From assembly GCF_011694815.1 (NCBI RefSeq), contig NZ_CP050177.1:2097001-2161000 (forward strand): 64,000 bases of DNA, given 5' to 3'. Position 1 is the first letter of the stretch, and every line of letters begins with the position of its first letter. Origin of the DNA: Streptomyces liangshanensis (GTDB lineage: Bacteria; Actinomycetota; Actinomycetes; Streptomycetales; Streptomycetaceae). Shown here piece after piece: positions 2,774-63,995 of the stretch. The notes under the pieces are model-generated. The model did not search any database. It was not told the DNA's origin and was given only the letters and a program-made list of their open reading frames with translations. The position numbers and the translations under genes were made by a program.

Positions 2774-4222
2774 TCAGAGGGCGAGGCCCGTCAGGACCAT
2801 CACGCGCTCGTAGGTGTAGTCCTCCATCGCGAACCGCACGCCCTCGCGGCCGACGCCGGACTGCTTGACGCCGCCGTACGGCATCTGGTCGGCGCGGTAC
2901 GACGGGACGTCGCCGATGATCACGCCGCCGACCTCCAGGGCGCGGTGGGCGCGGAAGGCGGCCTGGAGGTCATGGGTGAACACCCCTGCCTGGAGGCCGT
3001 ACGCGGACTCGTTGACGGCCTCGAAGGCGGCGCTCTCGCCCGTCACGCTCCGGACGGTGAGGACGGGCCCGAAGACCTCCTCGCGGGCGAGGGTGACGTC
3101 CTCGGGGACGTCGGCGAGGACGGTGGGCGCGTACGAGGAGCCGTCGCGCTTGCCGCCGGTGAGGAGCCGGGCGCCCGCCTGCACGGCCTCGTCGACCCAC
3201 GACTCGACGCGCCGGGCGGCCTCCTCGCTGACCAGCGGGCCGACGTCGGTGGAGTCGTCGGCCGGGTCGCCGGTGACCTGGGCCTCGACGGCGGCGACGA
3301 CGCGGGGCACGAGCCGCTCGTACACCGCCGCGTCCGCGATCACGCGCTGCACGGAGATGCAGGACTGGCCGCCCTGGTAGTTCGAGAAGGTGGCGATACG
3401 GGTCGCCGCGTGATCGAGGTCCGCGTCGCTCGCGAAGTCGGCGAGGACGACGGCGGCGCCGTTGCCGCCGAGTTCGAGCGTGCAGTGCTTGCGGGGGACG
3501 GAGTCCATGATCGCGTAGCCGACCTTGTCGGAACCGGTGAACGAGATCACCGGGAGCCGGTCGTCCTGGACGAGCGCGGGCATCCGGTCGTTCGGCACCG
3601 GCAGGACGGACCAGGCGCCGGCCGGCAGGTCGGTCTCGGCCAGCAGTTCGCCCAGGAGCAGGGCGGACAGGGGGGTGGCCGGGGCCGGCTTGAGGATGAT
3701 CGGGGTGCCGACGGCGAGGGCGGGGGCGACCTTGTGGGCGCAGAGGTTGAGCGGGAAGTTGAACGGCGCGATCCCGAGGACGACGCCCTTCGGGAAACGC
3801 CGCGTCAGCGCGAGGCGGCCGGCACCGCCCGCGTCGGTGTCGAGGCGCTGCGCCTCGCCGCCGTTGAACCGCCTGGCTTCCTCGGCGGCGAACCGGAACA
3901 CGGACACGGCGCGGCCGGCCTCGCCCCGGGCCCACTTGAGGGGTTTGCCGTTCTCGGCGGAGATGAGGCGGGCGATCTCCTCGGCGCGCTCGGCGAGGCG
4001 GCGCGACACGTGGTCGAGAGCGGTGGCCCGCTGGTGCGCGGGGGTCGCGGCGAACTCGGCGCGCACGGCGTACGCGGCCGCGACGGCCTCCTCGACCTGT
4101 GCCTCGGTCGGCACGGCGACGGTACCGACGTGCCGGCCGTCCCAGGGGGAGGTCACGTCGAGGGTGTCCTCGCCGGAGGTGGCCTGGCGGCCGGCGAGCC
4201 AGAAGGGGGTGGTGGAAGTCAT
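2774..4222 (-). CDS. NAD(P)-dependent aldehyde dehydrogenase, possibly succinate-semialdehyde type
   Basis: A full aldehyde dehydrogenase of 482 residues. The general-base glutamate sits in TLELGGNGA (E250) and the nucleophile in GGQSCIS (C288); a Rossmann signature FTGSDKVG is present. The ATG at 4222 (MTSTTPFW) is preferred to an in-frame GTG at 4264, because alignment to the family begins there. Upstream on the same strand lies a PucR regulator, and a GABA transaminase is about 5 kb away, so oxidation of succinate semialdehyde or a related omega-aldehyde is a fair guess. The KPAPATPLSALLL segment is more like lactaldehyde or phosphonoacetaldehyde-type enzymes, so the substrate stays open. 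Expression may be controlled by PucR. Confidence 0.75.
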   Translation of the reverse strand: MTSTTPFWLAGRQATSGEDTLDVTSPWDGRHVGTVAVPTEAQVEEAVAAAYAVRAEFAATPAHQRATALDHVSRRLAERAEEIARLISAENGKPLKWARGEAGRAVSVFRFAAEEARRFNGGEAQRLDTDAGGAGRLALTRRFPKGVVLGIAPFNFPLNLCAHKVAPALAVGTPIILKPAPATPLSALLLGELLAETDLPAGAWSVLPVPNDRMPALVQDDRLPVISFTGSDKVGYAIMDSVPRKHCTLELGGNGAAVVLADFASDADLDHAATRIATFSNYQGGQSCISVQRVIADAAVYERLVPRVVAAVEAQVTGDPADDSTDVGPLVSEEAARRVESWVDEAVQAGARLLTGGKRDGSSYAPTVLADVPEDVTLAREEVFGPVLTVRSVTGESAAFEAVNESAYGLQAGVFTHDLQAAFRAHRALEVGGVIIGDVPSYRADQMPYGGVKQSGVGREGVRFAMEDYTYERVMVLTGLAL

Positions 4223-4329
4223 GGGTCCACGGTAGGTGGGGGGCTGTCGTGCGGGGTTGGCCACGATGGAGTGGTGCCTGCTTCGGGGGCGCCGCTTTGG
4301 CGGGGGGGGGTCCGCGCGCCGGGCCTTTT

Positions 4330-4717
4330 GTCCTCAATCGCCGGACGGGCTTGATTGTGCCCCCTGCGGCCCGGATCCGACCCTCGGCTCGTCGCCGGGG
4401 GTCGGCCAGGGGCCATGTCCTGCACTGCATGTTTTACGTCGCGCTCACCAACCTGTCCTGATTAACCCCCGTCACGCGACACAAAACACGCTCTACGTTC
4501 CGGACACGACCCCTGCCCGCCCCCCTTCCAGGCGCACGCCAAAACAACCCGGCCCGCCCCGGGCTTGTTTTCAGCCCGTCCGGCGCTTGAGGACATCTTT
4601 GACCGCAACGGTCACGATCGGACCGCAACCCCTCTCAAGCCCGTCCGGCGATTGAGGACATCTTTGACCCGCACGGGCAGGCCCGAGCCACACCCAGCCC
4701 GTCCGGCGCTTGAGGAC
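4330..4717. repeat. Composite inverted-repeat island 1
   Basis: One forward copy of the ~23-bp unit TCCTCAATCGCCGGACGGGC lies at 4330-4352. Three inverted copies follow at 4573-4594, 4637-4659 and 4696-4717, spaced 59-64 bases apart; two have GCGCTTGAGG in place of GCGATTGAGG. The core between them holds a G-rich stretch (4391-4409) and TGCACTGCATGTTTTACG within 4416-4444, which recurs exactly in island 3. Most of the 531-base gap between the aldehyde dehydrogenase start and the PucR stop is this element. A run of nine G lies just to its left (4302-4310). No gene is supported here: the open frames only translate the repeat. Confidence 0.9.
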
Positions 4718-4753
4718 ATCCGTGAGCCGCGCCCGCGCAACGGGCGGACGGTG

Positions 4754-6295
4754 TTAGCGGTCGCTCGTCTTCAGGGAGAGCCACAGCTCCATGCGGACGT
4801 CCGGGTCGTCCAGGGAGCGTCCCAGGATCTCCTCCACCCGGCGCATCCGGTAACGGAGCGTGTGGCGGTGGACGCCCAGGTCCGCGGCCGCGGCGTCCCA
4901 CTGCCCGTGCCGCGACAGCCACGCCCGCAAGGACGCCACCAGGTCACCGCGCCCCTTCGCGTCGTGCTCGTACAGCGCCCGCAGCAACCCATCCGCGAAC
5001 GCCCGCACCGCGTCGTCCGCGAGGAGGGGCAGGATCGAGCCCGCCGCCAGCTCCTCGTGCTCGACCAGCACCCGCCCCCGCCGCCGCGCCACCGACAGCG
5101 CCGCCTCGGCCTGTTTGTACGCCCCGCCCACCGCGATGGGCCCCGTGGGCGCCGAGAGCCCGATCACCACGTCGTCCGGCGCGGCCGCCGACAAGGACGC
5201 CACCACCGCGCCCCCGTCCACCGCGAGCACCGCGAGCCGCTCCCCGTCGGGGACCGCGAGCACCGCCTCCCCCGCCCGCGCCCCCGCCGCCTCCAGCGCG
5301 TCGGAGAGGGCCTCCAGCGTGCCGGGCTCGGTGCTGTCGGACTCCGGTTCGGCGATCAGCAGGCGGAAGGGCGCGTCCAGCAGCCCGCCGTACAGCTCGC
5401 CCGCCACCGACCGCGCGTGGTCGGGCTGCCCCGACAGCAGCATCGTCAGGACCGCCGCGCCGAGCCGCTGCTCGGCCTCCTGGAGGGCCCGCGACCGCGC
5501 GGTCGTGAGCGTGAGGAGCGCGACCGCCGAGTGCACGGCGTACCGCTCGGCGGTGCCCAGCGCCGCGCCCGTACCCACCGCCAGCGCCCCGCCGACCCGC
5601 CGCCCCGTCCCCAGGGACTGGAGCTCGACCCGGTCCTCCGCCCCCTCGCCGTGGCCCGTGTGCCCGACGACCACGCTCGCCGGCGCCGGCCGCTCCCGCA
5701 GCCGGTCCACGTCCGCCGTCAGCCGGGCCGCGCGCCGCGCCGCCCACTCGGGCGCGGCGGCGACCACCGCGCCGGTCGCGTCGTACAGCGCCGCCCAGCC
5801 GTCCACGTACGCGGCGAGCCGGGTGAGCAGCACGGCGGGCCCGTCGGCGAGCGCGGCGCGGGTCAGTTCGCGCTGGGCCTCGAAGCCCGCTGTCACCGCC
5901 CGGTACTGGTCCGCCGAGATCGCCGCGGAGACGGCCTTGCTGATCGCCAGGAAGGGCGTGCGCCGGGGCACTTCGAGCAGAGGCAGCCCTTCGACGCGCG
6001 CCGCCGTGAGGAGCGCCTCGGGGACGTCGTCGTAGTTCACGCCCACCGCGAAGCCGAGTCCCGCGACCCCCGCGCCGACGAGCCGTCGTACGTACGTGGT
6101 CATGGCCTGCGGGTCCTCGGCGTCGAGGGTGGTGGCGGTGACGAGGAGCAGCTCGCCGCCCTCCATGTACGGCACCGGGTCGGCGAGCTCGCTGGCGTGG
6201 GCCCAGCGCACGGGCGTGCGCAGCCGGTCCTCGCCCGCGCGGACGGTGAGGTGGAGGGCCGAGTGCTGCACGAGCGAGGCGAGCGTGGGCGGCAT
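4754..6295 (-). CDS. PucR-family transcriptional regulator
   Basis: A 513-residue regulator. The N-terminus (to about residue 125) has the PucR sensory pattern, with RWAHASELADPVPYMEGGEL. The C-terminal ~60 residues contain the PucR helix-turn-helix, with LGVHRHTLRYRMRRVEEILG. PucR proteins in Bacillus and actinobacteria respond to nitrogen metabolites such as allantoin, GABA or polyamines and usually activate a nearby catabolic operon. The likely targets here are the aldehyde dehydrogenase downstream on the same strand and perhaps gabT. The start is the ATG at 6295. Repeat island 1 lies between this gene and the dehydrogenase, so the two may not be cotranscribed. Confidence 0.88.
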   Translation of the reverse strand: MPPTLASLVQHSALHLTVRAGEDRLRTPVRWAHASELADPVPYMEGGELLLVTATTLDAEDPQAMTTYVRRLVGAGVAGLGFAVGVNYDDVPEALLTAARVEGLPLLEVPRRTPFLAISKAVSAAISADQYRAVTAGFEAQRELTRAALADGPAVLLTRLAAYVDGWAALYDATGAVVAAAPEWAARRAARLTADVDRLRERPAPASVVVGHTGHGEGAEDRVELQSLGTGRRVGGALAVGTGAALGTAERYAVHSAVALLTLTTARSRALQEAEQRLGAAVLTMLLSGQPDHARSVAGELYGGLLDAPFRLLIAEPESDSTEPGTLEALSDALEAAGARAGEAVLAVPDGERLAVLAVDGGAVVASLSAAAPDDVVIGLSAPTGPIAVGGAYKQAEAALSVARRRGRVLVEHEELAAGSILPLLADDAVRAFADGLLRALYEHDAKGRGDLVASLRAWLSRHGQWDAAAADLGVHRHTLRYRMRRVEEILGRSLDDPDVRMELWLSLKTSDR

Positions 6296-10296: not shown

Positions 10297-10433
10297 GACG
10301 GGCCCTAGGGGCGCGGAACGACACTCATGGTCGGTAACCGCTGGTCAGAGCCTGTGAAGAAGGTGTGCGGGGGCCATGGGGGCCGCGCTTTCCCGCTGTC
10401 CGTCCTCCCCGCCCTGACGTACGGTTTGTGCAG

Positions 10434-11393
10434 ATGAGAGAAACACCCCGCTCGCAGGGGACTGCGGGCGACACCGGATCGGGGCGTCCCCAGCACCGTT
10501 CCGGCCGTGCCTTCGCGCACACCACCGGGGCTTCTGGCTCCGGGTCTCCTCATGGATCGGACGGCCGCACGGCCCAAACCCCCCGGGGCGTGCGGCACAC
10601 CGGTCCCGTCGGCCGCCCTGGAACCACCCCCCCTGTTCCAGGGCGGCCGCTTTCTCTCCTCTTCTCCGCGGTCCGCTCCGGCTTCCGGTCGGGCCTCTCC
10701 GCCTTCGTCTCCGTCTTCTCCGTCCCGCGCCGCCCGTGGCGTTCCCGGCGTACGTGGGGCTTCGCTCTGTGCGCGGTCCTCTTCGCCCTGGTCACCTGGC
10801 GGGCCGCCACCGACGGGCCCGTCCGCCGGGCCGACGAGCGGCTGGAACTGTCCCTCGCCGGTCACGGGCCCCGGCCGCTGACCGAGTTCTTCGCGGATCT
10901 CGGAAGCGTCGTGGTGGCCGTGCCCGTCCTGGCCCTGGCGCTCGGGTACGTGGTGTGGCGGGGGCGGCGCGACCGCGCGCTCGCGGCGGCCCTCACGATG
11001 GTGGCCGTGCCCCTGCTGGTCGTCCCGCTCAAGTTCGGGATCGACCGGCGGGGGCCGCTGACCGACGCCACCGGGTACTACCCGTCGGGCCACACGGCGA
11101 CGGCGATGGTCGCGTACGGCGCGGCGGCGCTGCTCCTCGCCCCGTACGCGGGCCGGAGACGTACGGTGCCCGTCGCCGTCCTGCTCACCCTGGCGACGGG
11201 CACCGGTCTTCTCCTGCGGGGCTACCACTGGCCGTTGGACGTCCTCGGCAGCCTGGCGCTCGGCGGGATACTGCTGCTCCTGCTGGACCGGGCGCTGCGG
11301 GGAGCGGACTCCCGGCGCGCCCGGCGGTCGGCGGGTGTCGGGCCGGTCAGGGGAAGTACGCGTCGAAGTTCCGCGAGAACTCCTGGCCGTTGA
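10434..11393 (+). CDS. PAP2-family membrane phosphatase
   Basis: A 319-residue membrane protein. About 100 residues of low-complexity N-terminus precede several hydrophobic segments. PAP2 phosphatase motifs are visible: a first motif around LKFGIDRRGP, the second YYPSGHTAT with its catalytic-type histidine, and the third RGYHWPLDVLGS. Family members remove phosphate from phosphatidic acid or undecaprenyl pyrophosphate at the membrane. Start choice is difficult: the ATG at 10434 lacks a ribosome site, but a -10-like TACGGT is a few bases upstream, so a leaderless transcript is possible. The last 47 bases overlap the convergent chitinase gene. Confidence 0.75.
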   Translation: MRETPRSQGTAGDTGSGRPQHRSGRAFAHTTGASGSGSPHGSDGRTAQTPRGVRHTGPVGRPGTTPPVPGRPLSLLFSAVRSGFRSGLSAFVSVFSVPRRPWRSRRTWGFALCAVLFALVTWRAATDGPVRRADERLELSLAGHGPRPLTEFFADLGSVVVAVPVLALALGYVVWRGRRDRALAAALTMVAVPLLVVPLKFGIDRRGPLTDATGYYPSGHTATAMVAYGAAALLLAPYAGRRRTVPVAVLLTLATGTGLLLRGYHWPLDVLGSLALGGILLLLLDRALRGADSRRARRSAGVGPVRGSTRRSSARTPGR

Positions 11394-34558: not shown

Positions 34559-34729
34559 GGCTTCCGCGGGGCGAACGGCCGCGCGGTCGGTGCCGAGGAC
34601 ACCGGTGATCGGCCGTCGCGAGGCGGACACGGGAATCTTCGTGGCGGGCGGGGGCCGGTGGGCGCGGGCGGGGTGCGCTGGGCGCGGGCGGGGCGGACGG
34701 TGAAGAGGACCGGCCGCTATCGTGACGCC

Positions 34730-35851
34730 ATGGTGAATGGCGATGACCTCCAACCGCAGCCGACGGACCGGGAGATAGAGACCCTCGACGAGTTCGACCT
34801 CAGGATCGTCGAAACCGGCGGGAAGCTCGACGGCTTCCGCCTCCAGTCCGTGGACCTGACCAGCCGTACGGACACCCTGATCGCCACCGACACCTCCGGC
34901 GCCGTGTTCCTCGGCTGCCCCATGGAGACCGACGCGCTGGCCAAGGTCCGCGCCGACGGGGCCCTGGTGTTCCCGCCCGTACCGAACCTGCCCTTCGACC
35001 CGTACCGGGGCCTCCTGTACTCCCCCGACCAGCTCTTCGACGGGCTCGCGGACCACGGGTACGACGCCACGCCGGACGCCCGGGCCTACGCGTGGTTCCA
35101 GCGCACCCGGTCGGACGGCGACGTGTTCGCCTCCATGCTGCGCTCGGTGCACGACGACGCGATCTCGGACGCCCTCGACGAACTGCTCGTCGGGGCGCGG
35201 GTGGTGGGTGTGATGGGCGGCCACGCGATGGCCCGCGGCACGGACGCGTACGCGGGGGCGGCGCGCCTCGGCCGCGCGCTGACCCGTACCGGGCTGACCG
35301 TCGCGACCGGGGGCGGGCCGGGCGCGATGGAGGCCGCGAACCTCGGCGCGTACGCCGCGCCCCACCCCGACGACATGCTGGACGAGGCGCTCGAACTCCT
35401 CGCCGAGACGCCGTCGTTCGTGCCCTCCGTCTCCGACTGGGCGCAGGCCGCCTTCGACGTGCGGGCGCGGTGGCCGAAGGGCGACGAGTCGGTGGGGGTC
35501 CCGACGTGGTTCTACGGCCACGAGCCGCCGAACGCGTTCGCCGCGCACATCGCGAAGTACTTCGCCAACGCGACCCGCGAGGACGGGTTGCTGGCGCGGT
35601 GCAACGCGGGCGTGATCTTCCTGCCGGGCGCGGCGGGGACGGTCCAGGAGATCTTCGACAACGCGACCCCGAACTACTACGAGTCGCGGGGCGAGCCGAC
35701 GCCGATGGTGCTGGTGGACCGGGAGCACTGGACGGAGACGCTGCCGACGTGGCCGCTGCTCTCGTCGCTGGCGCGACGGAGACCGATGGAGGCTCGGATA
35801 GCACTGGTCGACTCGGTAGACGACGCCCCGGCAGCGCTGGCCGCCCTGTAA
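34730..35851 (+). CDS. LOG-family (lysine decarboxylase-like) nucleotide-binding protein
   Basis: A 373-residue protein. About 130 residues of unrecognised N-terminus precede a Rossmann domain with GVMGGHAMARG, TGGGPGAMEAANLG and LPGAAGTVQEI. LOG family members hydrolyse nucleoside monophosphates (for example PpnN). The usual PGGxGTxxE motif has its second Gly replaced by Ala here; the catalytic Glu and Arg-type region remain. The ATG at 34730 (MVNGDD) is preferred. Expect a cytosolic nucleotide hydrolase; substrate open. It converges on the thiamine transporter genes across repeat island 2. Confidence 0.75.
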   Translation: MVNGDDLQPQPTDREIETLDEFDLRIVETGGKLDGFRLQSVDLTSRTDTLIATDTSGAVFLGCPMETDALAKVRADGALVFPPVPNLPFDPYRGLLYSPDQLFDGLADHGYDATPDARAYAWFQRTRSDGDVFASMLRSVHDDAISDALDELLVGARVVGVMGGHAMARGTDAYAGAARLGRALTRTGLTVATGGGPGAMEAANLGAYAAPHPDDMLDEALELLAETPSFVPSVSDWAQAAFDVRARWPKGDESVGVPTWFYGHEPPNAFAAHIAKYFANATREDGLLARCNAGVIFLPGAAGTVQEIFDNATPNYYESRGEPTPMVLVDREHWTETLPTWPLLSSLARRRPMEARIALVDSVDDAPAALAAL

Positions 35852-35880: not shown

Positions 35881-36122
35881 GTCCTCAATCGCCGGACGGG
35901 CTTGGGGGCCGGTGGGCCGCGCGGGTCACTGATTGTCCTCAATCGCCGGACGGGCTTGATGGTGCCCACTGCGGGCCGGTGGTCCCGGTGCGGCTTGTCG
36001 CCGGGGGCCGGGCCCAAACAGCCCGGCCCCGGCATTTCAAGCCCGTCCGGCGTTTGAGGACGTCTTTGACCCGCAGGGGCAACGGGCCCGAGCCCCCTCA
36101 AGCCCGTCCGGCGTTTGAGGAC
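35881..36122. repeat. Composite inverted-repeat island 2
   Basis: Two forward units (35881-35903 and 35935-35957) are followed, after a 81-base core, by two inverted units (36039-36061 and 36100-36122). The inverted units carry GCGTTTGAGG. The core contains GGTGCCCACTGCGGG and a G-rich stretch. It lies between the stops of the convergent LOG gene and the thiamine transporter ATPase gene. The spacer between its two forward units is almost identical to that of island 3. Confidence 0.92.
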
Positions 36123-36142: not shown

Positions 36143-37192
36143 TCAGCGCGACGGCGGAAGCACCACCACCTCGTCCTCCGCGAACGTCACCCCCACCACC
36201 TCCCCCTCCCGAGGCGCACCCCCCACCTCGCACTCCGCCTCCAACAAAGCCTCCCCCGCGCGGAGCGACACCCCCACCCGGCTCCCCCGGAACGTCCTCG
36301 CGGCGACAACACAACGCAACGCACCCGGCTCCCCGGACCCCGCGGACACCCGCACCCCGCCCGGCCGCACCAACAACGTCACCGCCCCCTGCGACGACCC
36401 CGCCGGCACCGGCACCCTCCCCCACGGCGTATCCGCGACGGACCCGGCGACCGTCGCCGGGACCACGTTCTCGAAGCCGAGGAAGCGCGCCACGAAGGCG
36501 GAGGCCGGCCGCTGCCACACCTCCAACGGCGTCCCGCTCTGCGCCACCCGCCCGTCCCGCATCACCACCACCCGGTCCGCGAGCGCGAACGCCTCGCCCT
36601 GGTCGTGCGTGACGGCCAGCACCGTCGTCCCCAACCGCCCGAAGAGGCCGCGCAGTTCGGCGACGAGCCGCTCCCGCAGGCTCCGGTCGAGCTGGCCCAG
36701 CGGCTCGTCGAGCATCAGCAGCCGGGGACGAGGCGCGAGCGCCCGCGCCAGCGCCACCCGCTGCTGCTCACCGCCCGAGAGCGCGGAGACGGCACGGCGC
36801 CCGGCCCCGGGCAGCCCGACGAGGTCGAGCAACTCCTCGACACGACGCGCCTGTTCGTCCCGCGAAACCCCCCGCATCCGCAGCCCGAAGGCGACGTTCC
36901 CGCCGACGTCACGCTGCGGGAACAGCTGGTGGTCCTGGAACATCAGCCCCACCCCCCGCCGGTGCACCGGCACCCCCGCCTGGTCCGCGCCGTCGAGCAG
37001 CACCCGTCCCCCGGAGAGCTCCTGGAGCCCGGCCACCACCCGCAGCAGCGTCGACTTGCCGCTCCCGCTCGGCCCCAGCACACACACGATCTCGTGCTCG
37101 GCGACCTCCAGGTCGACCGCGTCGAGCGCCGTCCTCGGGGCCTTGCGGTCGCCGAACCGTACCGTCACCCCCGCGAGACTGAGCAGCGTCAT
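36143..37192 (-). CDS. thiQ: Thiamine ABC transporter ATP-binding protein
   Basis: A 349-residue ATPase. Walker A is GPSGSGKST (near residue 40), signature LSGGEQQRVALARAL, Walker B LLMLDEPLGQLD, switch HDQGEA. About 110 residues of C-terminal domain follow, with VTLLVRPGGVRV, as in iron and thiamine importers. It powers uptake with ThiP and ThiB. Its ATG shares one base with the stop of the permease gene (TGATG). Assignment to thiamine, and not iron, rests on the ThiB gene and TPP riboswitch of the same operon. Confidence 0.87.
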   Translation of the reverse strand: MTLLSLAGVTVRFGDRKAPRTALDAVDLEVAEHEIVCVLGPSGSGKSTLLRVVAGLQELSGGRVLLDGADQAGVPVHRRGVGLMFQDHQLFPQRDVGGNVAFGLRMRGVSRDEQARRVEELLDLVGLPGAGRRAVSALSGGEQQRVALARALAPRPRLLMLDEPLGQLDRSLRERLVAELRGLFGRLGTTVLAVTHDQGEAFALADRVVVMRDGRVAQSGTPLEVWQRPASAFVARFLGFENVVPATVAGSVADTPWGRVPVPAGSSQGAVTLLVRPGGVRVSAGSGEPGALRCVVAARTFRGSRVGVSLRAGEALLEAECEVGGAPREGEVVGVTFAEDEVVVLPPSR

Positions 37193-38892
37193 CAGAATTC
37201 TCCCGAGCGGTCGGTACGGATACGTTCGAGCACGAGCAGCGACACCGCGCACACCACCATCAGCACGGTGCTCAAGGCCATCGCCTGCCCGTAGTTGAGC
37301 TCCCCGGGCCGGCCCAGCAGCCGCGCCACGGCCACCGGCAGCGTCGGCCGGTCGGGCCGCGCGATGAAGACCGTCGCGCCGAACTCGCCGAGCGAGACCG
37401 CGAAGGCGAACCCGGCCGCGACGAGCAATGCCCGCCGTACCAAGGGGAGATCGACCTCGCGCCAGGCCCGCAGCGGCGACGCGCCGAGCACCGCCGCCGC
37501 CTCGCGCAGCCGTCCGTCCACCGCCCGGAGCACGGGGAGCATGGTGCGTACGACAAAGGGCACCCCGACCAGCGCCTGGGCGAGCGGCACCAGGATCCAG
37601 GAGGCCCGCAGGTCCAGCGGCGGCTTGTCGAGGGTGATCAGGAAGCCGAAGCCGACGGTCACCGCCGAGACGCCCAGCGGCAGCATCAGCAGGGCGTCGA
37701 ACCCGCGCACGAGCCGCCCCGCCCGCCGGGTCAGCGCCGCGGCGGCCGACCCGCCCACGGCCAGGGCGATGGCCGTGGCGACCACCGCGTACTCCAGCGA
37801 GGTCCGCACCGCGTCCAGCGGCGGGACCAGGAAGGTACCGCTCGTCCCCACGGAGGTGAGCGCCCGGTAGAAGGTGAGGCCGTACCCGCCGGGGCCGTCG
37901 AAGGAGCGCTCGACCAGCACCCCGAGCGGCAGCAGGATCAGGAGGAGCACCACCGTGAGGACAACGCCGAGCAGCGTCCACTGTCCCGGCCCCTTCGGGC
38001 GGCGCGCCGTCAGCGCGGGGTCGACCAGGCGCAGCGCGGTCTCCCGCCGCCGTACGGTCCAGGCGTGCAGCGCCAGGATCGCGCCGACGGCGGCGAACTG
38101 CACGAGGGTCAGCACGGCGGCGGTCGGCAGGTCGAGCAGTTGCGCGGTCTGCCGGTAGATCTCCACCTCCAGCGTGGAGTAGGCGGGACCGCCCAGGATC
38201 TGGACGACGCCGAAGGAGGTGAAGGTGAAGAGGAAGACCATGAGGGCGGCGGCCGCGACGGCGGGGCCGAGGGCGGGCAGCGTCACCCGCCACCAGGCGG
38301 CGAGGCGGCTCGCGCCGAGGACCCGGGCGGCTTCCTCCTGGCGCGGGTCGAGCTGTGACCACAGGCCGCCGACGGTCCGTACGACCACCGCGTAGTTGAA
38401 GAAGACGTGCGCGAGGAGGATCGCCCAGACCGTCGTGTCCAGGCGCACACCCCACAGTTCGTCGAGGAGTCCGCCGCGTCCGAGGAGGGCGAGGAAGGCG
38501 GTGCCGACGACGACGGTGGGCAGGACGAACGGCACGGTGACGACGGCCCGGAGCAGGTGTCTGCCGGGGAAGTCGAAGCGGGCGAAGACGTACGCGCCGG
38601 GCAGGGCGACGACGAGGGTGAGCGCCGTGGAGGCGAGGGCCTGCCAGGTGGTGAACCAGAGGACGTCGAGGATGTCGGGGCGGCTCAGTACGTCCCCGAC
38701 GCGGCCGAACTGCCAGACGCCGTCGCTCCGCAGCCCGCGGCCGACGATCGCGGTCACGGGGTACGCGAAGAAGACCGCGAAGAACAGGACGGGCACGGCC
38801 ATGAGGCCGAGCCGTACGGCGTGTGCCCGTACGGCCCGGCGGTCCGGCTCGCGGACTACTTCACTACGAGTGAGGTCCACGTCTGGATCCAC
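37192..38892 (-). CDS. thiP: Thiamine ABC transporter permease
   Basis: A 566-residue fused double permease with about 12 membrane segments, each half with its own EAA loop (EEAARVLGASRLAAW and REAAAVLGASPLRAW). This double layout is typical of ThiP and of FbpB. The GTG at 38892 gives a 37-base overlap with the end of thiB in another frame. A second GTG at 38880 would shorten it by four residues. One operon with thiB and thiQ. Confidence 0.87.
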   Translation of the reverse strand: MDPDVDLTRSEVVREPDRRAVRAHAVRLGLMAVPVLFFAVFFAYPVTAIVGRGLRSDGVWQFGRVGDVLSRPDILDVLWFTTWQALASTALTLVVALPGAYVFARFDFPGRHLLRAVVTVPFVLPTVVVGTAFLALLGRGGLLDELWGVRLDTTVWAILLAHVFFNYAVVVRTVGGLWSQLDPRQEEAARVLGASRLAAWWRVTLPALGPAVAAAALMVFLFTFTSFGVVQILGGPAYSTLEVEIYRQTAQLLDLPTAAVLTLVQFAAVGAILALHAWTVRRRETALRLVDPALTARRPKGPGQWTLLGVVLTVVLLLILLPLGVLVERSFDGPGGYGLTFYRALTSVGTSGTFLVPPLDAVRTSLEYAVVATAIALAVGGSAAAALTRRAGRLVRGFDALLMLPLGVSAVTVGFGFLITLDKPPLDLRASWILVPLAQALVGVPFVVRTMLPVLRAVDGRLREAAAVLGASPLRAWREVDLPLVRRALLVAAGFAFAVSLGEFGATVFIARPDRPTLPVAVARLLGRPGELNYGQAMALSTVLMVVCAVSLLVLERIRTDRSGEF

Positions 38893-45220: not shown

Positions 45221-46168
45221 TCAGGCCTGCTCGTTGTCCGCAGCCGGGGCGGCAGCCTCGGTCTCGGCCGGGGCGGCGGCCTCGTCGACCTGCTCGGCGT
45301 CGGCGACCTTCTCCGTCTCGGCGGAGGTCTGGACGTCGGCCTCGGCGGCGACGGCGGCGTCGTCGGCGGGCTTCTCGGCGTCGTCCTTCTTCTCGCCCTC
45401 GAGGAGGTCGCGCTCCCACTCGGCGAGGGGCTCGCCGACGGCCTTCTCGCCCGGCTTGGAGTCACCGGTGGCGACGCCGGAACGGGCGATGAGGCCCTCG
45501 GCGACGGCGTCGGCGATCACGCGGGTGAGCAGCGTGACGGAGCGGATCGCGTCGTCGTTGCCGGGGATCTTGTAGTCGACCTCGTCGGGGTCGCAGTTGG
45601 TGTCGAGGATCGCGACGACCGGGATGTGGAGCTTGCGCGCCTCACCGACCGCGATGTGCTCCTTCTTGGTGTCCACGATCCAGACGGCGCTGGGCACCTT
45701 CTGCATCTCGCGGATACCGCCGAGGGTCTTCTCCAGCTTGGCCTTCTCGCGGGAGAGGACGAGCAGCTCCTTCTTCGTGAGGCCCGAGGCCGCCACGTCG
45801 TCGAAGTCGATCTGCTCGAGCTCCTTGAGGCGCTGGAGACGCTTGTAGACGGTGGAGAAGTTGGTCAGCATGCCGCCGAGCCAGCGCTGGTTGACGTAGG
45901 GCATGCCCACGCGCGTCGCCTGCTCGGCGATCGCTTCCTGCGCCTGCTTCTTGGTGCCGACGAACATGACGGAGCCGCCGTGGGCGACCGTCTCCTTGAC
46001 GAACTCGTAGGCGCGGTCGATGTACGACAGCGACTGGAGCAGGTCGATGATGTAGATGCCGTTGCGCTCCGTGAAGATGAATCGCTTCATCTTCGGGTTC
46101 CAACGACGGGTCTGGTGACCGAAGTGGACGCCGCTTTCCAGCAGCTCCCGCATCGTGACGACGGCCAT
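45221..46168 (-). CDS. rpsB: 30S ribosomal protein S2
   Basis: A 315-residue S2 protein. The core (to about residue 240) has the family blocks [27 protein letters not shown] and [14 protein letters not shown]. About 70 Ala/Glu-rich residues follow, an extension common in actinobacteria. The ATG at 46168 has AGGAGT six bases before it. First gene of the rpsB-tsf pair. A likely promoter (-10 TACACT) is 165 bases upstream, and the leader carries a hairpin. Confidence 0.96.
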
Positions 46169-46196
46169 GGCCGTACTCCTAGAGGCTCTCGGTTGT

Positions 46197-46220
46197 CGCA
46201 CCCGCCGGACGGCGGATGCG
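46197..46220 (-). other. Hairpin in the rpsB leader
   Basis: On the transcript CGCATCCGCC pairs with GGCGGGTGCG (10 bp, one G-U pair, 4-base loop GTCC). It lies about 30 bases before the S2 start. S2 represses its own synthesis in E. coli, so a leader target is possible. Confidence 0.45.
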
Positions 46221-46332
46221 CCTGACGCCCCGACGCGCTGTGCCACGGAGGACCGAGTAGCGCGGCCGGCGGCTCGAAGAGGCCGCTGGCGGGGCGTGCG
46301 AAGTCGACCCGGTGACCCGGATCGCCACATGA

Positions 46333-46338
46333 AGTGTA
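46333..46338 (-). promoter_or_regulatory. Probable rpsB promoter -10 box
   Basis: TACACT on the minus strand matches the primary-sigma -10 well. No strong -35 box was identified upstream. A start there would give a leader of about 155 bases. Confidence 0.45.
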
Positions 46339-46445
46339 CGGGACCCGCGCACCCCCGAGTGACGGCGATATCCACAACCGGGGCGCTGTCCACAGATCCG
46401 GGGTGTGATCGGCGGGGGTGGGGTGGTGGGGGCGAGCCTGTACGC

Positions 46446-46991
46446 ATGCGCACCGCTCTCCTCCTGACCCTGACCCTGCTCACCCCCTCCCCGCTCACGC
46501 CCTCGGCCGCCCCCACCCCTGCCACCCCTCCCGCCGTCTGGCCCGTGACCCCGGCCTCGGTCGTACGGGCATGGGATCCGCCCGCCTCCCCGTACGGCCC
46601 CGGCCACCGGGGGATCGACCTGGCCGCGCCCCCGGGCACCCCGGTACGGGCCGCGGCGGCGGGGCGGGTGCTGTACGCGGGGCAGGTGGCGGGGCGCGGC
46701 GTCCTGTCGATCACGCTCACGAGCCCGCCCACGAAGCCGGGCGCCCCACCCCTCCGCATCACCTACGAACCGGTGGACGCCCTGGTCACCCGAGGCACGG
46801 AGGTCGAGGCGGGCGAGCTGGTGGCGAGGCGCTCACTGTCCGCGTCCCACTGCGCGACGGAGTGCCTGCACTGGGGCCTACGCAGCGGCGACACGTACCT
46901 GAACCCGGTGTCCCTACTCTCCCACTCCGAACTGACCCGCCCCCCACCCCGCCTACTCCCCACGCTCAGCGTCCCCCTCCCCAAGCAATGA
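46446..46991 (+). CDS. Secreted M23-like peptidase domain protein
   Basis: A 181-residue protein. A signal peptide ([14 protein letters not shown], cleavage near residue 22) is followed by a LytM fold with [21 protein letters not shown]. The first zinc ligands (HRGID) are present. The terminal HxH reads CLHWG, with Cys replacing the first His. This variant occurs, as I recall, in a Streptomyces group; activity is uncertain. It may cut or bind peptidoglycan. It diverges from rpsB. The Cys pair in SHCATEC could form a disulphide outside the cell. Confidence 0.8.
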
Positions 46992-47352
46992 CAGCCTCAC
47001 CAATCGTCCTCAATCGCCGGACGGGCTGGGGGGCCGGTGGGCCGCGCGGGTCACCGCTTTGTCCTCAATCGCCGGACGGGCTTGATGGTGCCCGCTGCGG
47101 GCGGGTTTCGATCCGCGGGCCGGTTGCCGGGGGTCGGGCAGGGGTCGTGTCCTGCACTGCATGTTTTACGTCGCGCGCAACCCCTCTCAAGCCCGTCCGG
47201 CGATTGAGGACATCCTTGACCCGCACGGGCAACGGACCGGAGCCAAAATCAGCCCGTCCGGCGATTGAGGACATCGGTGAGCCGCGCACGCGCACCGGGC
47301 CGACGCACAACCAAGCCCGTCCGGCGATTGAGGACGCGTGGGGCTGGGCCGA
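46992..47352. other. Intergenic gap of 361 bases filled by repeat island 3
   Basis: Between the stops of the convergent M23-like and TetR genes. Apart from the repeat island (47006-47335) only a few flanking bases remain. No gene or promoter is seen. Confidence 0.8.
47006..47335. repeat. Composite inverted-repeat island 3
   Basis: Two forward units (47006-47027 and 47061-47083), a core, and three inverted units (47189-47211, 47251-47272, 47313-47335) with an exact 62-base period. The core has GGTGCCCGCTGCGGGCGG, a G-rich stretch, and a 29-base block (47148-47176) identical to island 1. This is the most complete of the four islands. Confidence 0.93.
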
Positions 47353-47934
47353 CTACGGGTGGACGCCTCGTAGGACCATGGCCACCGTCGTTTCCGCGAC
47401 CTCCGTCGGGGTTTCGGCGGCGCCCAGCTCGATACGACGGACCGCCGCGTCCACCATCCCCTGCACCAGCATCGCCGCCAACCGCGGCCTCTCGTGTCCC
47501 AGGTCCGCGAGCGCTTCGACGATCATCGCGATCAACCCCCCGTGCGCCGCCCGGATCTGTTCCCGCGCGCCCGCGTCCAGTTCGCTCGCCGAGATCGCGA
47601 CCACCGCGCGGTGGTGGCGGTCGCCGACCAGCGCGAGCTGCGTCCGTACGTACGCCTCGACCTTCGCCTCCGGCGCCCCCACCCCCGCCATCGCCGCCTC
47701 GACCTCCGCCGCCCAGACCGGGAAGTCGACGGTGCACAGCTCCTCGACCACGGCCGCGCGCGAACGGAAGTACTCGTAGACCGACGACCTGGCGAGCCCC
47801 GTGCGCTCGGCGAGGGCCGGGAAGGTCAGCGCGTCCGTACCGCCTTCCGACAGAAGGGAGCGTGCGGCGTCCAGCAGGGCGCCTCGCTGCATCGTCCGGT
47901 GCTCGGCCACGGAGGCCGCTCGAATCCTGGGCAC
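47353..47934 (-). CDS. TetR-family transcriptional regulator
   Basis: A 193-residue regulator. The N-terminal helix-turn-helix spans about residues 18-62 (LSEGGTDALTFPALAERTG, LARSSVYEYF). The C-terminal ligand domain is not one I can assign. The GTG at 47934 begins 37 bases downstream of the whiG stop, so the gene may be read with whiG. Its neighbours give no obvious target besides itself. Confidence 0.85.
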   Translation of the reverse strand: MPRIRAASVAEHRTMQRGALLDAARSLLSEGGTDALTFPALAERTGLARSSVYEYFRSRAAVVEELCTVDFPVWAAEVEAAMAGVGAPEAKVEAYVRTQLALVGDRHHRAVVAISASELDAGAREQIRAAHGGLIAMIVEALADLGHERPRLAAMLVQGMVDAAVRRIELGAAETPTEVAETTVAMVLRGVHP

Positions 47935-60053: not shown

Positions 60054-60728
60054 TCAGCTCGCGGCGGCGACCACTTCCGGGATACGGAACGGCTTGCCGC
60101 AGCCACCGCAGACGATGGGCGCCTGGGCCAGGACCGACGGGACCACGCGGACGTTGCGCCCGCAGTCGCAGACCGCCTTGACGCGCACGCCCCCGCCGGA
60201 CGAGCCGTGCCGGGCCGCGGGGCCGCGGAAACTCCGCTTGGTGTCGGCGGCCGTCGCGACCGTGTGCGCCTTGAGGGCCCGTTGCAGGCGCTCCATGGTG
60301 GGGCGGTAACGGCGCTTCGCCTCGGGGCTGAGCGAGACCAGCGAGAAGCCGCTGCTGGGATGCGGCTCCTCGGGGTGGTCGAGGCCCATCTCCTCGGCGA
60401 TCGCCAGGAATCGGCGGTTGTGATAGCGGCCCGCTCGCGAGGTGTCGCGGACACCTCTCGCCGCGGCGATGCCGTGGACCGCTTCGTGAAGCAGTCGTTC
60501 GAATGAGAGCTCCGCGCCGCAGGCGGACGAGGACTCTCCGATCAGGGACTCTGGCGCGGCAAGATCCGGCAGCTCGGGGTGGGACCGCTGAATATCGGCC
60601 CACGCCTGTGCCAGCTCTGCGGCGAGAACAGGTGGTGTCGTGCTCACGTCGTGAATAACGAGCTGGGACGCTCCGGGGTTCCATTCCGGGGCATCCCAAA
60701 TAATTTGCACGTACCCGTCAGTTGCCAT
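60054..60728 (-). CDS. SprT-like zinc metalloprotease candidate with C-terminal zinc ribbon
   Basis: A 224-residue protein. HEAVHG (around residue 81) is a HExxH zinc site, with a later HN and Arg-rich stretch RYHNRRFLAIAEEMG. The C-terminus has CDCG and CGGCG, a zinc ribbon. This layout recalls SprT/Spartan, which cuts DNA-protein crosslinks; similarity is at the motif level only. The ATG at 60728 is taken. It lies between ffh-side genes and rpsP, outside the usual ribosomal order. I have no direct evidence for substrate. Confidence 0.65.
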   Translation of the reverse strand: MATDGYVQIIWDAPEWNPGASQLVIHDVSTTPPVLAAELAQAWADIQRSHPELPDLAAPESLIGESSSACGAELSFERLLHEAVHGIAAARGVRDTSRAGRYHNRRFLAIAEEMGLDHPEEPHPSSGFSLVSLSPEAKRRYRPTMERLQRALKAHTVATAADTKRSFRGPAARHGSSGGGVRVKAVCDCGRNVRVVPSVLAQAPIVCGGCGKPFRIPEVVAAAS

Positions 60729-61354
60729 TGATGCGTCCTGACGAGGGCGGGTGCGTAGATCTGCGGAGAAGTCTCACAGCTCATACCAAGCTGGTACGTA
60801 GCGACTCGTACGCTTCGACGCGTAGACGATCTACGTACGGGGGCGCGGGCGCACAGAAGGCGCGGGCGGGCTGCGGGGCGGGCGCTCGACGGAGCGCGGG
60901 CCACAAGACCGACAGTACCCGCCGCATCGCCGGATTCCGGCACCGGGCCGTCGTGCGGCCGGGGGCGTACGCGCGGGGCGTACGCGGGCGCGGGATCGCG
61001 CCGCCCGTGCGCCACCACCCGTTCGGCCCAGTCCCCGGCGCGGTGCGGGTGAGGCGGTTGTCGGCCAGTTCGCGGACGGGGGGTGGACCCGGGCGCCCCA
61101 AGGGAAATCGGCTGTCCGAGCCGCCGGAACAGGGATGTTCGCCCGGCACCGGCCCGGGCGGCCGGGACGCCCCAGGACGGGAACCGGCCGCACACGCGGG
61201 GGCGTACCAGTGGTTCACCGACGCTTTGCCAATCGCCCACTGGACGCGGGCACGGATGCGGAGTTCCCTGGCATACGGGGGATGTAGACGCGCACGTACA
61301 CGGGGGATGTCATTCGGGGCAATACCGACCTCTCGGCGGATTGGGGCGCTATCC
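60729..61354. other. Intergenic region of 626 bases
   Basis: Between the divergent SprT-like and methyltransferase genes. It holds GTACGTAG and CTACGTAC as an inverted pair (60793-60800 and 60829-60836) and a direct repeat ACGGGGGATGT at 61275-61285 and 61300-61310. Open frames crossing it are Arg/Pro/Gly-rich without family pattern, so I see no gene. Promoters of both genes must lie here. Confidence 0.5.
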
Positions 61355-62227
61355 ATGACACGTACGCTCGTCCAGCACCATACGAACGCGGGGCCGCCCC
61401 CGGCGGTCGCCTCCGACACCTCCGTACGCGCCCGTGACTGGGCCGAGATCCAGGAACGCATGCTGGTGCCGCTGCACGAGGCGGTGTACGAGCGCCTGGA
61501 GGTCCGCGCGGGGACCCGGTTGCTCGGCCTGGGCTGCGGCTCGGGCCTGGCGCTCCTGATGGCGTCGGCGCGGGGCGCGCGGGTCACGGGGGTGGACTCC
61601 GACGACGAGCTGTTGGCGCTGGCCCGGACCCGGCTGGCCGCGGACGCGGAGCTGCCGGGCCGGGCATCCGGGTCCGGCGGGGCGCCCTCCGGGGCGGTGC
61701 TCCCCACGTCCCGGATGAGCGAGGCCGCGCTGCCGGGCGGGGTGCCGTACGACGTGATCACGGCGCTCCAGCCGATCGGCTGCGTGGCGGGCGACGCGAA
61801 GGGGCTCGGACCCGCGCTGGACGCGGCGATACCGCTGGCGGGCCGGGGTACCCCGGTGGTGCTGACGGGCTGGGGCCCGCCGGAGCGCTGTGCGACGGCG
61901 GGGGTCCTGCGGGTCGCGGGCCGGCTCGCCGACCGCCTGCGCAAGGGGGGTTGGCGCCCTGCGTACCGGGACGACCTGGAAGAGGTCGCCGCCCGGGCGG
62001 GACTCAAGCCGGACGGCTCAGGCCGGGTGTCGTGCCCGTTCGGCTACGCGGACACGGAGAGCGCGGTGCGCGGGCTGCTGTCCACGGGGGTGTTCGACGG
62101 GGCGGTGCGGGCGACGGACCGGCGGCAGGTGGAGAAGGAGATCGCGGAGGCCCTGCACCCGTACGTACGCAAGGACGGCACGGTCTGGATGCCGAACGTC
62201 TTCCGCTACCTGATCGCGCGCACGTAA
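61355..62227 (+). CDS. SAM-dependent methyltransferase
   Basis: A 290-residue Rossmann methyltransferase. SAM loop RLLGLGCGSGLALLMAS (about residues 52-68) and an acidic VTGVDSDDE. The substrate part is not one I can assign. The ATG at 61355 lacks a strong ribosome site; two direct repeats 45-80 bases upstream may be regulatory. The S. coelicolor equivalent near ffh is, as I recall, also called methyltransferase. It converges on ffh over repeat island 4. Confidence 0.8.
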   Translation: MTRTLVQHHTNAGPPPAVASDTSVRARDWAEIQERMLVPLHEAVYERLEVRAGTRLLGLGCGSGLALLMASARGARVTGVDSDDELLALARTRLAADAELPGRASGSGGAPSGAVLPTSRMSEAALPGGVPYDVITALQPIGCVAGDAKGLGPALDAAIPLAGRGTPVVLTGWGPPERCATAGVLRVAGRLADRLRKGGWRPAYRDDLEEVAARAGLKPDGSGRVSCPFGYADTESAVRGLLSTGVFDGAVRATDRRQVEKEIAEALHPYVRKDGTVWMPNVFRYLIART

Positions 62228-62249: not shown

Positions 62250-62422
62250 GTCCTCAATCGCCGGACGGGCTTGGATCTGTCGCCACGTCCGTGTCCGGGC
62301 GCGGGTCACAGATGTCCTCAAACGCCGGACGGGCTGGATTGGCCCGCTGCGACCCGCCGCCTGGGCGGGGGTCGCCGCCGGGGCAAGGCCGGGATCAACA
62401 AGCCCGTCCGGCGATTGAGGAC
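62250..62422. repeat. Composite inverted-repeat island 4
   Basis: Two forward units (62250-62272 and 62314-62335, the second with CAAACG) are followed by a core containing GGCCCGCTGCGACCCG and a hairpin of GCGACCC and GGGTCGC, then one inverted unit (62400-62422). It fills the gap between the convergent methyltransferase and ffh stops. Smallest of the four. Confidence 0.9.
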
Positions 62423-62435
62423 AGTCTTTTCGGGG

Positions 62436-63995
62436 TCAGCCCATGAACTTCTTGAACTCGTCGGGGAGTTCGAAGTTCTTGTCGGGCTCGCCGGTCGGCA
62501 GGCCGAAGGCGTTGCCCGGGGACGACTCCCCCGACTCCCGCCGCGTCGCCGCCGCCTGCTCGTCCAGCTTGCGCTTCATCGGGTTGCCCGAGCGCTGCTT
62601 GCCCTTCGCGACCTTCTGCTTCTTCTTCGTACGGCCGGGACCGCCGCCCATCCCGGGAACGCCCGGCATCCCGGGCATCCCGCCGCCCTGCGCCATCTTC
62701 GACATCATCTTGCGCGCCTCGAAGAACCGCTCGACCAGGTTCTTGACCGCGCTGACCTCCACTCCGGAACCGCGCGCGATCCGCGCCCGGCGCGAGCCGT
62801 TGATGATGGTCGGCTCGTGACGCTCGCCCGGCGTCATCGACTTGATGATCGCGGCGGTACGGTCCACGTCCCGCTCGTCGATGTTGTTGATCTGGTCCTT
62901 GATCTGGCCCATGCCGGGGAGCATGCCGAGCAGCTTGGAGATGCTGCCCATCTTCCTGACCTGTTCCATCTGGGCGAGGAAGTCGTCCAGCGTGAAGTCC
63001 TTGCCGCCCTTGCTGCTCTGGAGCTTGGCGGCCATCTTCTCGGCCTCGGCCTGGCTGAACGTCTTCTCCGCCTGCTCGATCAGGGTGAGGAGGTCACCCA
63101 TGTCGAGGATGCGGGACGCCATCCGGTCCGGGTGGAACGCGTCGAACTCGTCGAGCTTCTCGCCGTTCGAGGCGAACATGATCTGCTTGCCGGTCACGTG
63201 CGCGATGGACAGCGCCGCACCACCGCGGGCGTCGCCGTCGAGCTTGGAGAGGACCACGCCGTCGAAGCCGACGCCGTCGCGGAACGCCTCGGCGGTGTTG
63301 ACCGCGTCCTGGCCGATCATCGCGTCGACGACGAAGAGCGTCTCGTCGGGGTTGACCGCGTCGCGGATGTCCGAGGCCTGCTTCATCAGCTCCTGGTCGA
63401 TGCCCAGGCGGCCGGCGGTGTCGACGACGACGATGTCGTACTGCCGCGAGCGGGCGTACTCGATCGAGTCCTTGGCGACCTTGACCGGGTCGCCGACCCC
63501 GTTGCCCGGCTCCGGGGCGTACACGGCGACGCCCGCGCGCTCGGCGACGACGGAGAGCTGGGTGACGGCGTTGGGGCGTTGGAGGTCACAGGCGACCAGC
63601 AGCGGGGAGTGGCCCTGGTTCTTGAGCCAGAGGCCGAGCTTTCCCGCGAGGGTGGTCTTACCGGCGCCCTGGAGGCCCGCGAGCATGATGACGGTGGGTG
63701 CCGTCTTGGCGAAGCGCAGCCGCCGGGTCTCACCGCCGAGGATGCCGACGAGCTCCTCGTTGACGATCTTGATGACCTGCTGGCTCGGGTTCAGCGCGCC
63801 CGAGACCTCGGCGCCGCTTGCCCGCTCCTTGACCTTGGCGATGAAGGCGCGCACGACGGGCAGGGCCACGTCGGCCTCGAGCAGCGCGATACGGATCTCG
63901 CGGGCCGTGGCGTCGATGTCCTCCGGGCTGAGGCGCCCTTTGCCCCGGAGGCTCTTGAATGTGGCTGCGAGGCGGTCGGAGAGAGTGTCGAACAC
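62436..63995 (-). CDS. ffh: Signal recognition particle protein Ffh
   Basis: A 519-residue SRP54 GTPase, complete from the GTG at 63995, five bases from the window end. N domain, then G domain with LAGLQGAGKTTLAGK, DTAGRLGIDQEL and SKLDGDARGGAALS; the M domain is Met/Gly-rich (GGGMPGMPGVPGMGGG). It guides membrane and secreted proteins to the Sec channel. The C-terminal tail with basic and acidic runs is usual in Streptomyces. Its upstream region lies outside the window, so regulation is not visible. Confidence 0.95.
   Translation of the reverse strand: MFDTLSDRLAATFKSLRGKGRLSPEDIDATAREIRIALLEADVALPVVRAFIAKVKERASGAEVSGALNPSQQVIKIVNEELVGILGGETRRLRFAKTAPTVIMLAGLQGAGKTTLAGKLGLWLKNQGHSPLLVACDLQRPNAVTQLSVVAERAGVAVYAPEPGNGVGDPVKVAKDSIEYARSRQYDIVVVDTAGRLGIDQELMKQASDIRDAVNPDETLFVVDAMIGQDAVNTAEAFRDGVGFDGVVLSKLDGDARGGAALSIAHVTGKQIMFASNGEKLDEFDAFHPDRMASRILDMGDLLTLIEQAEKTFSQAEAEKMAAKLQSSKGGKDFTLDDFLAQMEQVRKMGSISKLLGMLPGMGQIKDQINNIDERDVDRTAAIIKSMTPGERHEPTIINGSRRARIARGSGVEVSAVKNLVERFFEARKMMSKMAQGGGMPGMPGVPGMGGGPGRTKKKQKVAKGKQRSGNPMKRKLDEQAAATRRESGESSPGNAFGLPTGEPDKNFELPDEFKKFMG

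What the first reader, a model, noticed from the sequence alone, without database searches (positions are those of the whole stretch)
47006..47335. Family of intergenic repeat islands built from inverted copies of a ~23-bp unit
Four islands (4330-4717, 35881-36122, 47006-47335, 62250-62422) contain 16 copies of the unit TCCTCAATCGCCGGACGGGC. In every island forward copies lie left and reverse-complement copies lie right of a core, so a transcript crossing an island could fold left copies on right copies as 22-23-bp helices. Inverted copies recur every 59-64 bases. The plan is too ordered for drifted REP sequences. Short similar repeats occur, as I recall, in other Streptomyces genomes, but I know no name or function.
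Basis: partly seen in the sequence, partly recalled or inferred. Interest (0 to 1): 0.8.

Follow-up and report, generated by a model that had tools for sequence, protein, structure and literature searches.

The report
Nested hairpin repeats at gene ends
Streptomyces genomes carry up to hundreds of copies of a short repeat that sits just behind genes and pairs with inverted copies of itself to form hairpins, apparently in place of ordinary transcription stop signals, and the longest of these islands enclose a second, apparently undescribed hairpin whose shape is conserved across species.

Summary
In detail: all 16 copies are there (0.04 expected). The window's Streptomyces genome holds 251, and all 56 mixed-orientation islands examined run forward-then-reverse. 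Islands lie a median 22 nt behind stop codons, rarely between divergent genes, and fold far better than shuffles.

Relatives explain the plan. The unit occurs in 113 of 150 Streptomyces genomes. In G051 and G109 it forms simple, mostly compact hairpins; in G002 the reverse order prevails. Behind ffh, 56 of 72 other loci have a perfect stem of 10 bp or more; the window has the island instead.

I read the unit as a CGTC-tagged, REP-like repeat building BIME-like foldbacks that serve as two-way 3'-end elements. No Y1 (RAYT) transposase is present.

Long islands enclose a separate ~120-nt hairpin with a conserved internal loop and covarying stems (19 of 28 pairs, 31 sequences). It is in 51 of 295 genomes, also where the unit is absent, and matches no Rfam family. 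It is probably undescribed.

Termination, RNA stabilisation and mobility are inferred.

The parts
4330..4717 (.). Island I: units + 4330-4350; - 4574-4594, 4639-4659, 4697-4717; full core inside; 37 nt from the 3' end of a PucR-type gene (4754-6295 -)
   Evidence: (tandem)
4401..4518 (-). Full core hairpin of island I
   Evidence: covariance-model match in L040 14868-14985, 115 bits
35881..36122 (.). Island II: units + 35881-35901, 35935-35955; - 36041-36061, 36102-36122; short core; between convergent genes (34658-35851 +; ABC-transporter gene 36143-38455 -)
47006..47335 (.). Island III (flagged): units + 47006-47026, 47061-47081; - 47191-47211, 47252-47272, 47315-47335; between convergent genes (M23 peptidase 46155-46991 +; TetR regulator 47353-47934 -)
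47149..47175 (-). Half of a core (right arm only) left inside island III
   Evidence: right-arm motif of L042, 0 mismatches, without its left arm
62250..62422 (.). Island IV: units + 62250-62270, 62314-62334; - 62402-62422; short core; between a methyltransferase-like gene (60722-62227 +) and ffh (62436-63995 -), in the slot where other loci have a compact hairpin

Best explanation
The unit is one half-stem of a foldback hairpin belonging to a REP-like, [C/T]GTC-tagged repeat family of Streptomyces. In its simplest form (species G051, G109) a forward and a reverse copy a few to a few tens of nt apart make a perfect hairpin behind genes. In the window's species the hairpins have grown into nested, BIME-like mosaics: tandem repeats of about 61-65 bp on one or both arms and, in the longest islands, a second structured element (the core) in the loop. 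Shown: distribution, orientation order, position behind stop codons, fold potential, presence behind ffh where relatives have a compact hairpin, covariation in the core. Inferred: transcripts from either side fold into the hairpin, which ends or bounds the RNA 3' end (termination, possibly with Rho, and/or protection from 3' exonucleases), so one island can serve both convergent genes. Inferred: copies spread within genomes by an unidentified route that needs no resident Y1 (RAYT) transposase.
For: One orientation switch per island: 56 of 56 mixed islands in G000, 15 of 15 in the G002 list, 32 of 32 and 30 of 30 in the G051 and G109 lists. Unit edge to stop codon median 22 nt (IQR 12.5-41, n 111). 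40 convergent, 31 tandem, 3 divergent of 74 classed islands, against 96, 378 and 159 of 633 gaps of at least 60 bp. 46 of 47 islands fold at z below -4, controls 1 of 47. G051: the variable base is complementary in 26 of 32 pairs (17.3 expected, p 0.0001). Behind ffh 56 of 72 other loci have a stem of at least 10 bp, 24 of 216 random pieces do, the window's longest is 6 and its island fills the place. [C/T]GTC tag in 218 of 228 copies.
Against: No RNA data. No U-tract: 0.61 T in the 8 nt after 80 hairpin sides in G051/G109. In G000 the first 100 nt behind island-flanked convergent genes hold weaker local hairpins than other convergent ends (best 40-nt window, median -19.2 against -24.4 kcal/mol, p 4e-8; 80 and 184 ends), and the fold energy of 320 nt does not differ (p 0.64). 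In G000 the variable base is not complementary between innermost copies (17 of 50; 23.5 expected by shuffling). A single unit is a poor hairpin. The ffh slot is one locus. Mobility rests on copy-number variation and within-genome similarity, not on empty sites.
Confidence: 0.55

Rival explanations
1. Selfish mobile palindromes without host function: units and cores spread as folded single strands (REPIN- or IS200/IS605-like, or with another recombinase) and persist behind genes because insertion there does least harm.
For: Patchy copy number, 0 to 386 units per genome; core copies 85% identical within and 61% between genomes (non-G000 sites); core structure is strand-asymmetric yet its strand is not tied to the upstream gene (38 with, 31 against).
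Against: No Y1 transposase in G000, G002, G051, G109, G074, G173 or G225, though 6 of 15 genomes tested have one; no recurrent recombinase seen among the 25 largest of 163 protein clusters near cores; no target-site duplication or precise empty site shown. Does not by itself explain the missing compact hairpin behind ffh.
Confidence: 0.25
2. Binding sites for a DNA-binding or nucleoid protein (or gyrase): the near-invariant unit is the site, and inverted pairs are bound as duplex or cruciform.
For: 20 of 21 unit positions are nearly invariant over 228 copies, and the same unit recurs across the genus.
Against: Strong bias to gene 3' ends and near absence between divergent genes; perfect half-stem pairing with matched variable base in G051 points to folding. 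No binding data.
Confidence: 0.12
3. Conventional MITE: an IS-derived element with the units as terminal inverted repeats and the core as its remnant interior.
For: Units lie inverted around a core, in many copies.
Against: Several nested units per arm and loops of 3 to 245 nt; cores without units (G098: 0 units, 8 core motifs) and units without cores (G002: 386 units, no core); no linked transposase seen.
Confidence: 0.05

Closest known systems
CGTC-tagged REPs (Di Nocera et al. 2013, PMC3733652; abstract and passages seen)
   Same: CGTC tag with frequent TGTC variant, many extragenic copies, inverted dimers, position behind coding regions, no dedicated transposase.
   Different: Reported stems of 8-9 bp; here 7 possible pairs with a 2-nt bulge and a 5-nt loop, weakly kept. 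Reported from other phyla; the words Streptomyces and Actinobacteria do not occur in its main text.
BIMEs (mosaics of REPs and other motifs in E. coli; mentioned in passages of PMC1590033 and PMC6006769, details recalled)
   Same: Inverted repeats combined with other conserved motifs into islands behind genes; position-dependent unit subtypes.
   Different: One orientation switch per island instead of alternation (alternation in E. coli is recalled); a long structured core; no sequence relation tested.
REPIN/RAYT systems (PMC3116915, listing only; PMC6006769, passages)
   Same: Inverted pair of tagged units as the basic form, high copy number.
   Different: No Y1 transposase in the genome; tag is not GTAG.
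Streptomyces intrinsic terminators (PMC12207403, passages)
   Same: Position after stop codons, long stable hairpins, few Us; the island stands where such a hairpin stands behind ffh.
   Different: One sequence repeated over the genome and the genus; long-range nested foldbacks in G000.

Membership tests
REP, CGTC-tagged superfamily | CGTC (or TGTC) tag at one end | tested here: met
   TGTC 160 and CGTC 58 of 228 copies
REP, CGTC-tagged superfamily | Short imperfect palindrome with an 8-9 bp stem | tested here: inconclusive
   TCAA/TTGA plus GCC/GGC can pair, but T at the outer pairing position in 129 of 228 only and six units tested do not out-fold shuffles
REP, CGTC-tagged superfamily | Many extragenic copies, inverted dimers, behind coding regions | tested here: met
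REPIN/RAYT | Y1 (PF01797) transposase in the genome | tested here: not met
   0 in G000, control genomes ring; absent from 9 of 15 genomes
BIME | Mosaic of palindromic units and other conserved motifs | tested here: met
   units, recurrent spacers and core
BIME | Alternating orientation of units (recalled) | tested here: not met
   single switch in 56 of 56 islands
Intrinsic terminator | Compact hairpin just behind the gene | tested here: inconclusive
   present in G051 and G109, weaker than usual in G000
Intrinsic terminator | U-tract after the stem | tested here: not met
   mean 0.61 T in 8 nt over 80 sides of 40 hairpins in G051 and G109; not counted in G000
Intrinsic terminator | RNA 3' ends at the site | not testable with these tools
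   no transcript data
MITE | Target-site duplication and a parent transposon | not tested
   no systematic duplication test; flanks printed only; no parent met
Known Rfam RNA (for the core) | Match to one of 4227 models | tested here: not met
   window at gathering scores: only Scr5676 elsewhere; L050 (full core) and L042 up to E 5: nothing at islands; cores of other genomes not scanned

The most novel reading that the evidence does not exclude
The core is an undescribed class of small structured mobile element: a hairpin of about 120 nt with a conserved asymmetric internal loop (about CGTRRA opposite AG), conserved G-U pairs on one strand, a free terminal loop and species-specific outer stems that covary. 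It multiplies within Streptomyces genomes and settles at gene ends, in some species nested inside the unit hairpins, by an enzyme that is not a Y1 transposase and acts on one strand of folded DNA or RNA.
Probability: 0.3. Interest if true: 0.75.

Novelty: new variant of a known kind. Interest (0 to 1): 0.52.

Why it matters
It gives REP-type repeats an actinobacterial family found in most Streptomyces sampled, with visible stages from a simple hairpin to a nested mosaic, and a natural experiment behind ffh in which a repeat island stands where relatives have a terminator-like hairpin. How Streptomyces end transcripts with few U-tracts is open; islands present many times per genome offer a replicated test. 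The core, with strong covariation and no Rfam match, is a concrete new target: a new structured RNA or a new hairpin mobile element.

Tried and rejected
RAYT-driven REPINs: rejected as the present driver. PF01797 is absent from G000 and from 9 of 15 genomes tested, among them unit-rich G002, G051, G109 and core-rich G074, G173, G225; it is present in 6 (G085, G098, G165, G257, G258, G278), some of them core carriers.

Core as an mRNA-strand element: in G000 tandem islands 9 cores lie with the gene and 4 against, but over all genomes sampled it is 38 against 31 (p 0.47). Dropped.

Replication-strand bias of cores: looked at by eye in the position lists for G000, G074 and G098; no consistent direction; not computed.

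Transposase beside cores: 844 proteins of the non-G000 loci gave 163 clusters, of which the 25 largest were printed and judged by eye from 60 residues; no recurrent recombinase. One TnpB-like protein (name recalled from its sequence) lies 224 bp from a core in G085, its three homologues 920-3392 bp away. Taken as chance.

M23/TetR locus in relatives: none of 24 printed slices holds a unit, but slices of minus-strand matches fell elsewhere, so only the 9 plus-strand ones could show the place; not used as evidence.

Plasmids and phages: the flagged island has no phage match and partial matches in 3 plasmid records. A G074 core matches one Streptomyces plasmid well (85% over 79% of the query, between two tandem genes); six further records match only its flank. 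The G225 double core has no match.

Literature: the unit's letters are in no held paper; shorter pieces of unit and core hit only papers that look unrelated by title (PMC10771470, an actinomycete paper with 12 letters of the unit, was not opened; 20 of 88 papers were listed). Topic searches listed no description of these islands. The library holds open-licence PMC papers only, so absence from print is not shown. Passages only were read of PMC4681348, PMC8269248, PMC1590033, PMC12207403, PMC8914203, PMC3733652 (and its abstract), PMC6006769 and PMC3765725.

Full report
What was checked. The flagged island 47006-47335 and its three companions are as described: 16 copies with at most one mismatch each, forward copies left of reverse copies in all four. 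The window lies in a 7.72-Mb chromosome (G000) with 129 forward and 122 reverse copies at up to 2 mismatches and none for the pattern read backwards; its ffh protein is 85-90% identical to those of many Streptomyces. Position lists are capped at about 100 per search and not quite complete. From them, 65 islands below 6.12 Mb include 42 mixed ones, all forward-then-reverse. Directly in 57 fetched stretches of 20 kb, chosen because they hold copies, 77 islands include 56 mixed ones with no violation, log10 P -31.7 under random order.

Anatomy. Over 228 copies with at most 2 mismatches the unit reads [TC]GTCCTCAANCGCCGGACGGGCT[TG]GA. One base varies (T 134, G 52, A 41, C 1); the other 20 of the 21 scored positions are kept in at least 220 copies. 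Same-strand copies are 61-65 bases apart in 63 of 105 cases; spacers recur and reappear inverted on the other arm (read by eye). In 36 of 56 mixed islands one side has a single copy and the other at least two. The variable base depends on position: A in 23 of 51 innermost copies of multi-copy arms, 2 of 51 outermost, 2 of 55 single ones. Gaps between innermost copies run from 3 to 245 nt; 21 of 56 are 198-245, the size that holds a full core.

Place. With a simple codon-usage gene caller written here (not an annotation; a few calls overlap islands), 74 of 77 islands could be classed: 40 convergent, 31 tandem, 3 divergent. The 633 gene gaps of at least 60 bp in the same stretches, islands included, are 96, 378 and 159. 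The unit edge is a median 22 nt from a stop codon (n 111) and, in tandem cases, 99 nt from the next start (n 31). In the window, islands II, III and IV lie between convergent genes and island I behind a PucR-type gene.

Folding. The flagged island folds at -236.4 kcal/mol, z -9.94. Of 47 mixed islands of at least 100 nt, 46 have z below -4; of 47 control pieces 2-6 kb away, 1 does. Six single units tested are unremarkable. Against a plain terminator reading, the first 100 nt behind island-flanked convergent genes hold weaker local hairpins than other convergent ends (best 40-nt window -19.2 against -24.4 kcal/mol, p 4e-8), the longest perfect stem does not differ (7 against 8, p 0.21), nor does the energy of 320 nt (p 0.64).

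Relatives. The unit is in 113 of 150 Streptomyces genomes drawn, 0 to 386 copies, with 0 or 1 reversed-pattern hits per genome. In G051 (first 100 of 229 exact copies listed) all 32 mixed islands are a forward-reverse pair with gaps of 6-29 nt, 22 of them at most 12; in G109 (first 100 of 113) all 30 are, with gaps of 9-138 nt, 5 of them at most 12. I fetched 40 of these 62 pairs: 14 convergent, 25 tandem, 1 divergent, flanked by further recurrent hairpins, a median 82 nt from the stop codon, with 0.61 T in the 8 nt after the stem. The variable base is complementary in 26 of 32 G051 pairs (17.3 expected, p 0.0001); in G000 it is in 17 of 50 innermost pairs (23.5 expected) and 37 of 50 outermost (33.7; p 0.08). 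In G002 (first 100 of 222 exact copies listed) 4 mixed islands run forward-reverse and 11 reverse-forward, none alternates. The common rule is one orientation switch per island, which is what a foldback needs; the polarity is species-specific.

The ffh comparison. Island IV lies behind ffh. Of 80 fetched ffh loci I compared 72; left out were L141 (too little sequence), L151 and six of other families. None of the 72 has the unit (up to 4 mismatches) within 400 nt of the stop; 56 have a perfect stem of at least 10 bp within 160 nt, as 24 of 216 random pieces do; 60 have at least 8 bp, as 82 of 216 do. The window's longest compact stem is 6. Only Streptomyces sp. AcH 505, whose stretch is partly masked, has the core there. 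The island thus stands in the slot of a terminator-like hairpin.

The core. 22 full cores in the G000 stretches have nearly invariant arms (GTGTCCGGAACGTAGAGCGTGTTTTGTGTCGCG and CGCGACGTAAAACATGCAGTGCAGGAC; two copies have one mismatch, one copy diverges) around a variable loop. The left motif is in 8 of 150 genomes, among them G098, which has no unit. A covariance model from 22 sequences finds 51 of 295 genomes at E <= 0.001, at most 12 candidates scored per genome. One copy from each of 30 genomes plus AcH 505, aligned by sequence alone: 94.3% of cells pair (shuffled 83.8), 19 of 28 pairs change on both sides (shuffled 8.6, 0 of 500 as high; slid versions at most 10), covariation score 0.335 against 0.140. 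Two cautions: the copies were found with a structure model, and the structure was predicted from this alignment. Two inner pairs are G-U in 29 and 28 of 31. Outside G000, copies are 85% identical within and 61% between genomes. From the listed core hits I fetched 100, best-scoring first; with G000, 138 of 140 sites were classed: 62 convergent, 69 tandem, 7 divergent, against 139, 391 and 235 of 765 gaps; the core strand is with the upstream gene in 38 tandem cases and against it in 31. In G074 and G257 cores again lie between variants of the unit (by eye). The full core of L050 matches no Rfam family.

Reading. The nearest described class is the CGTC-tagged REPs (PMC3733652, abstract and passages): the tag and its TGTC variant, inverted dimers, place behind genes and lack of a dedicated transposase agree; the single-unit stem does not clearly. 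REPIN/RAYT membership fails for want of a Y1 transposase. Place, two-way symmetry, the foldback rule and the ffh slot favour a 3'-end element for both flanking transcripts; whether it terminates, stabilises, or recruits Rho or a nuclease is inference. Streptomyces terminators are reported as U-poor with long stable hairpins (PMC12207403, passages), and overlapping convergent transcripts as common (PMC3765725, passages), so such an element would have work to do.

Noticed in passing
window 10432-10561 +: Match to Rfam RF02832 (Scr5676, Streptomyces RNA 5676), 110.5 bits against a gathering score of 56.
   Followed up: no
L305, L306, L307, L308, L291, L294, L298, L299 (genome G225): Two cores in opposite orientation about 90 bp apart recur as one double element in at least these eight loci.
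   Followed up: partly
G051 and G109 loci L379-L418: Unit hairpins are flanked by further recurrent species-specific GC hairpins, making composite three-hairpin islands.
   Followed up: partly
NZ_CP108777.1 (Embleya sp. NBC_00896, 3.1-Mb replicon): Eleven places similar to part of the flagged island on a replicon of another genus.
   Followed up: no
NZ_CP108416.1 91053-91258 (Streptomyces sp. NBC_01298 plasmid): A core 85% identical to a G074 core on a linear plasmid, between two tandem genes.
   Followed up: partly
L274 (genome G085), about 3570-5116: A TnpB-like gene (name recalled) ends 224 bp from a core.
   Followed up: partly
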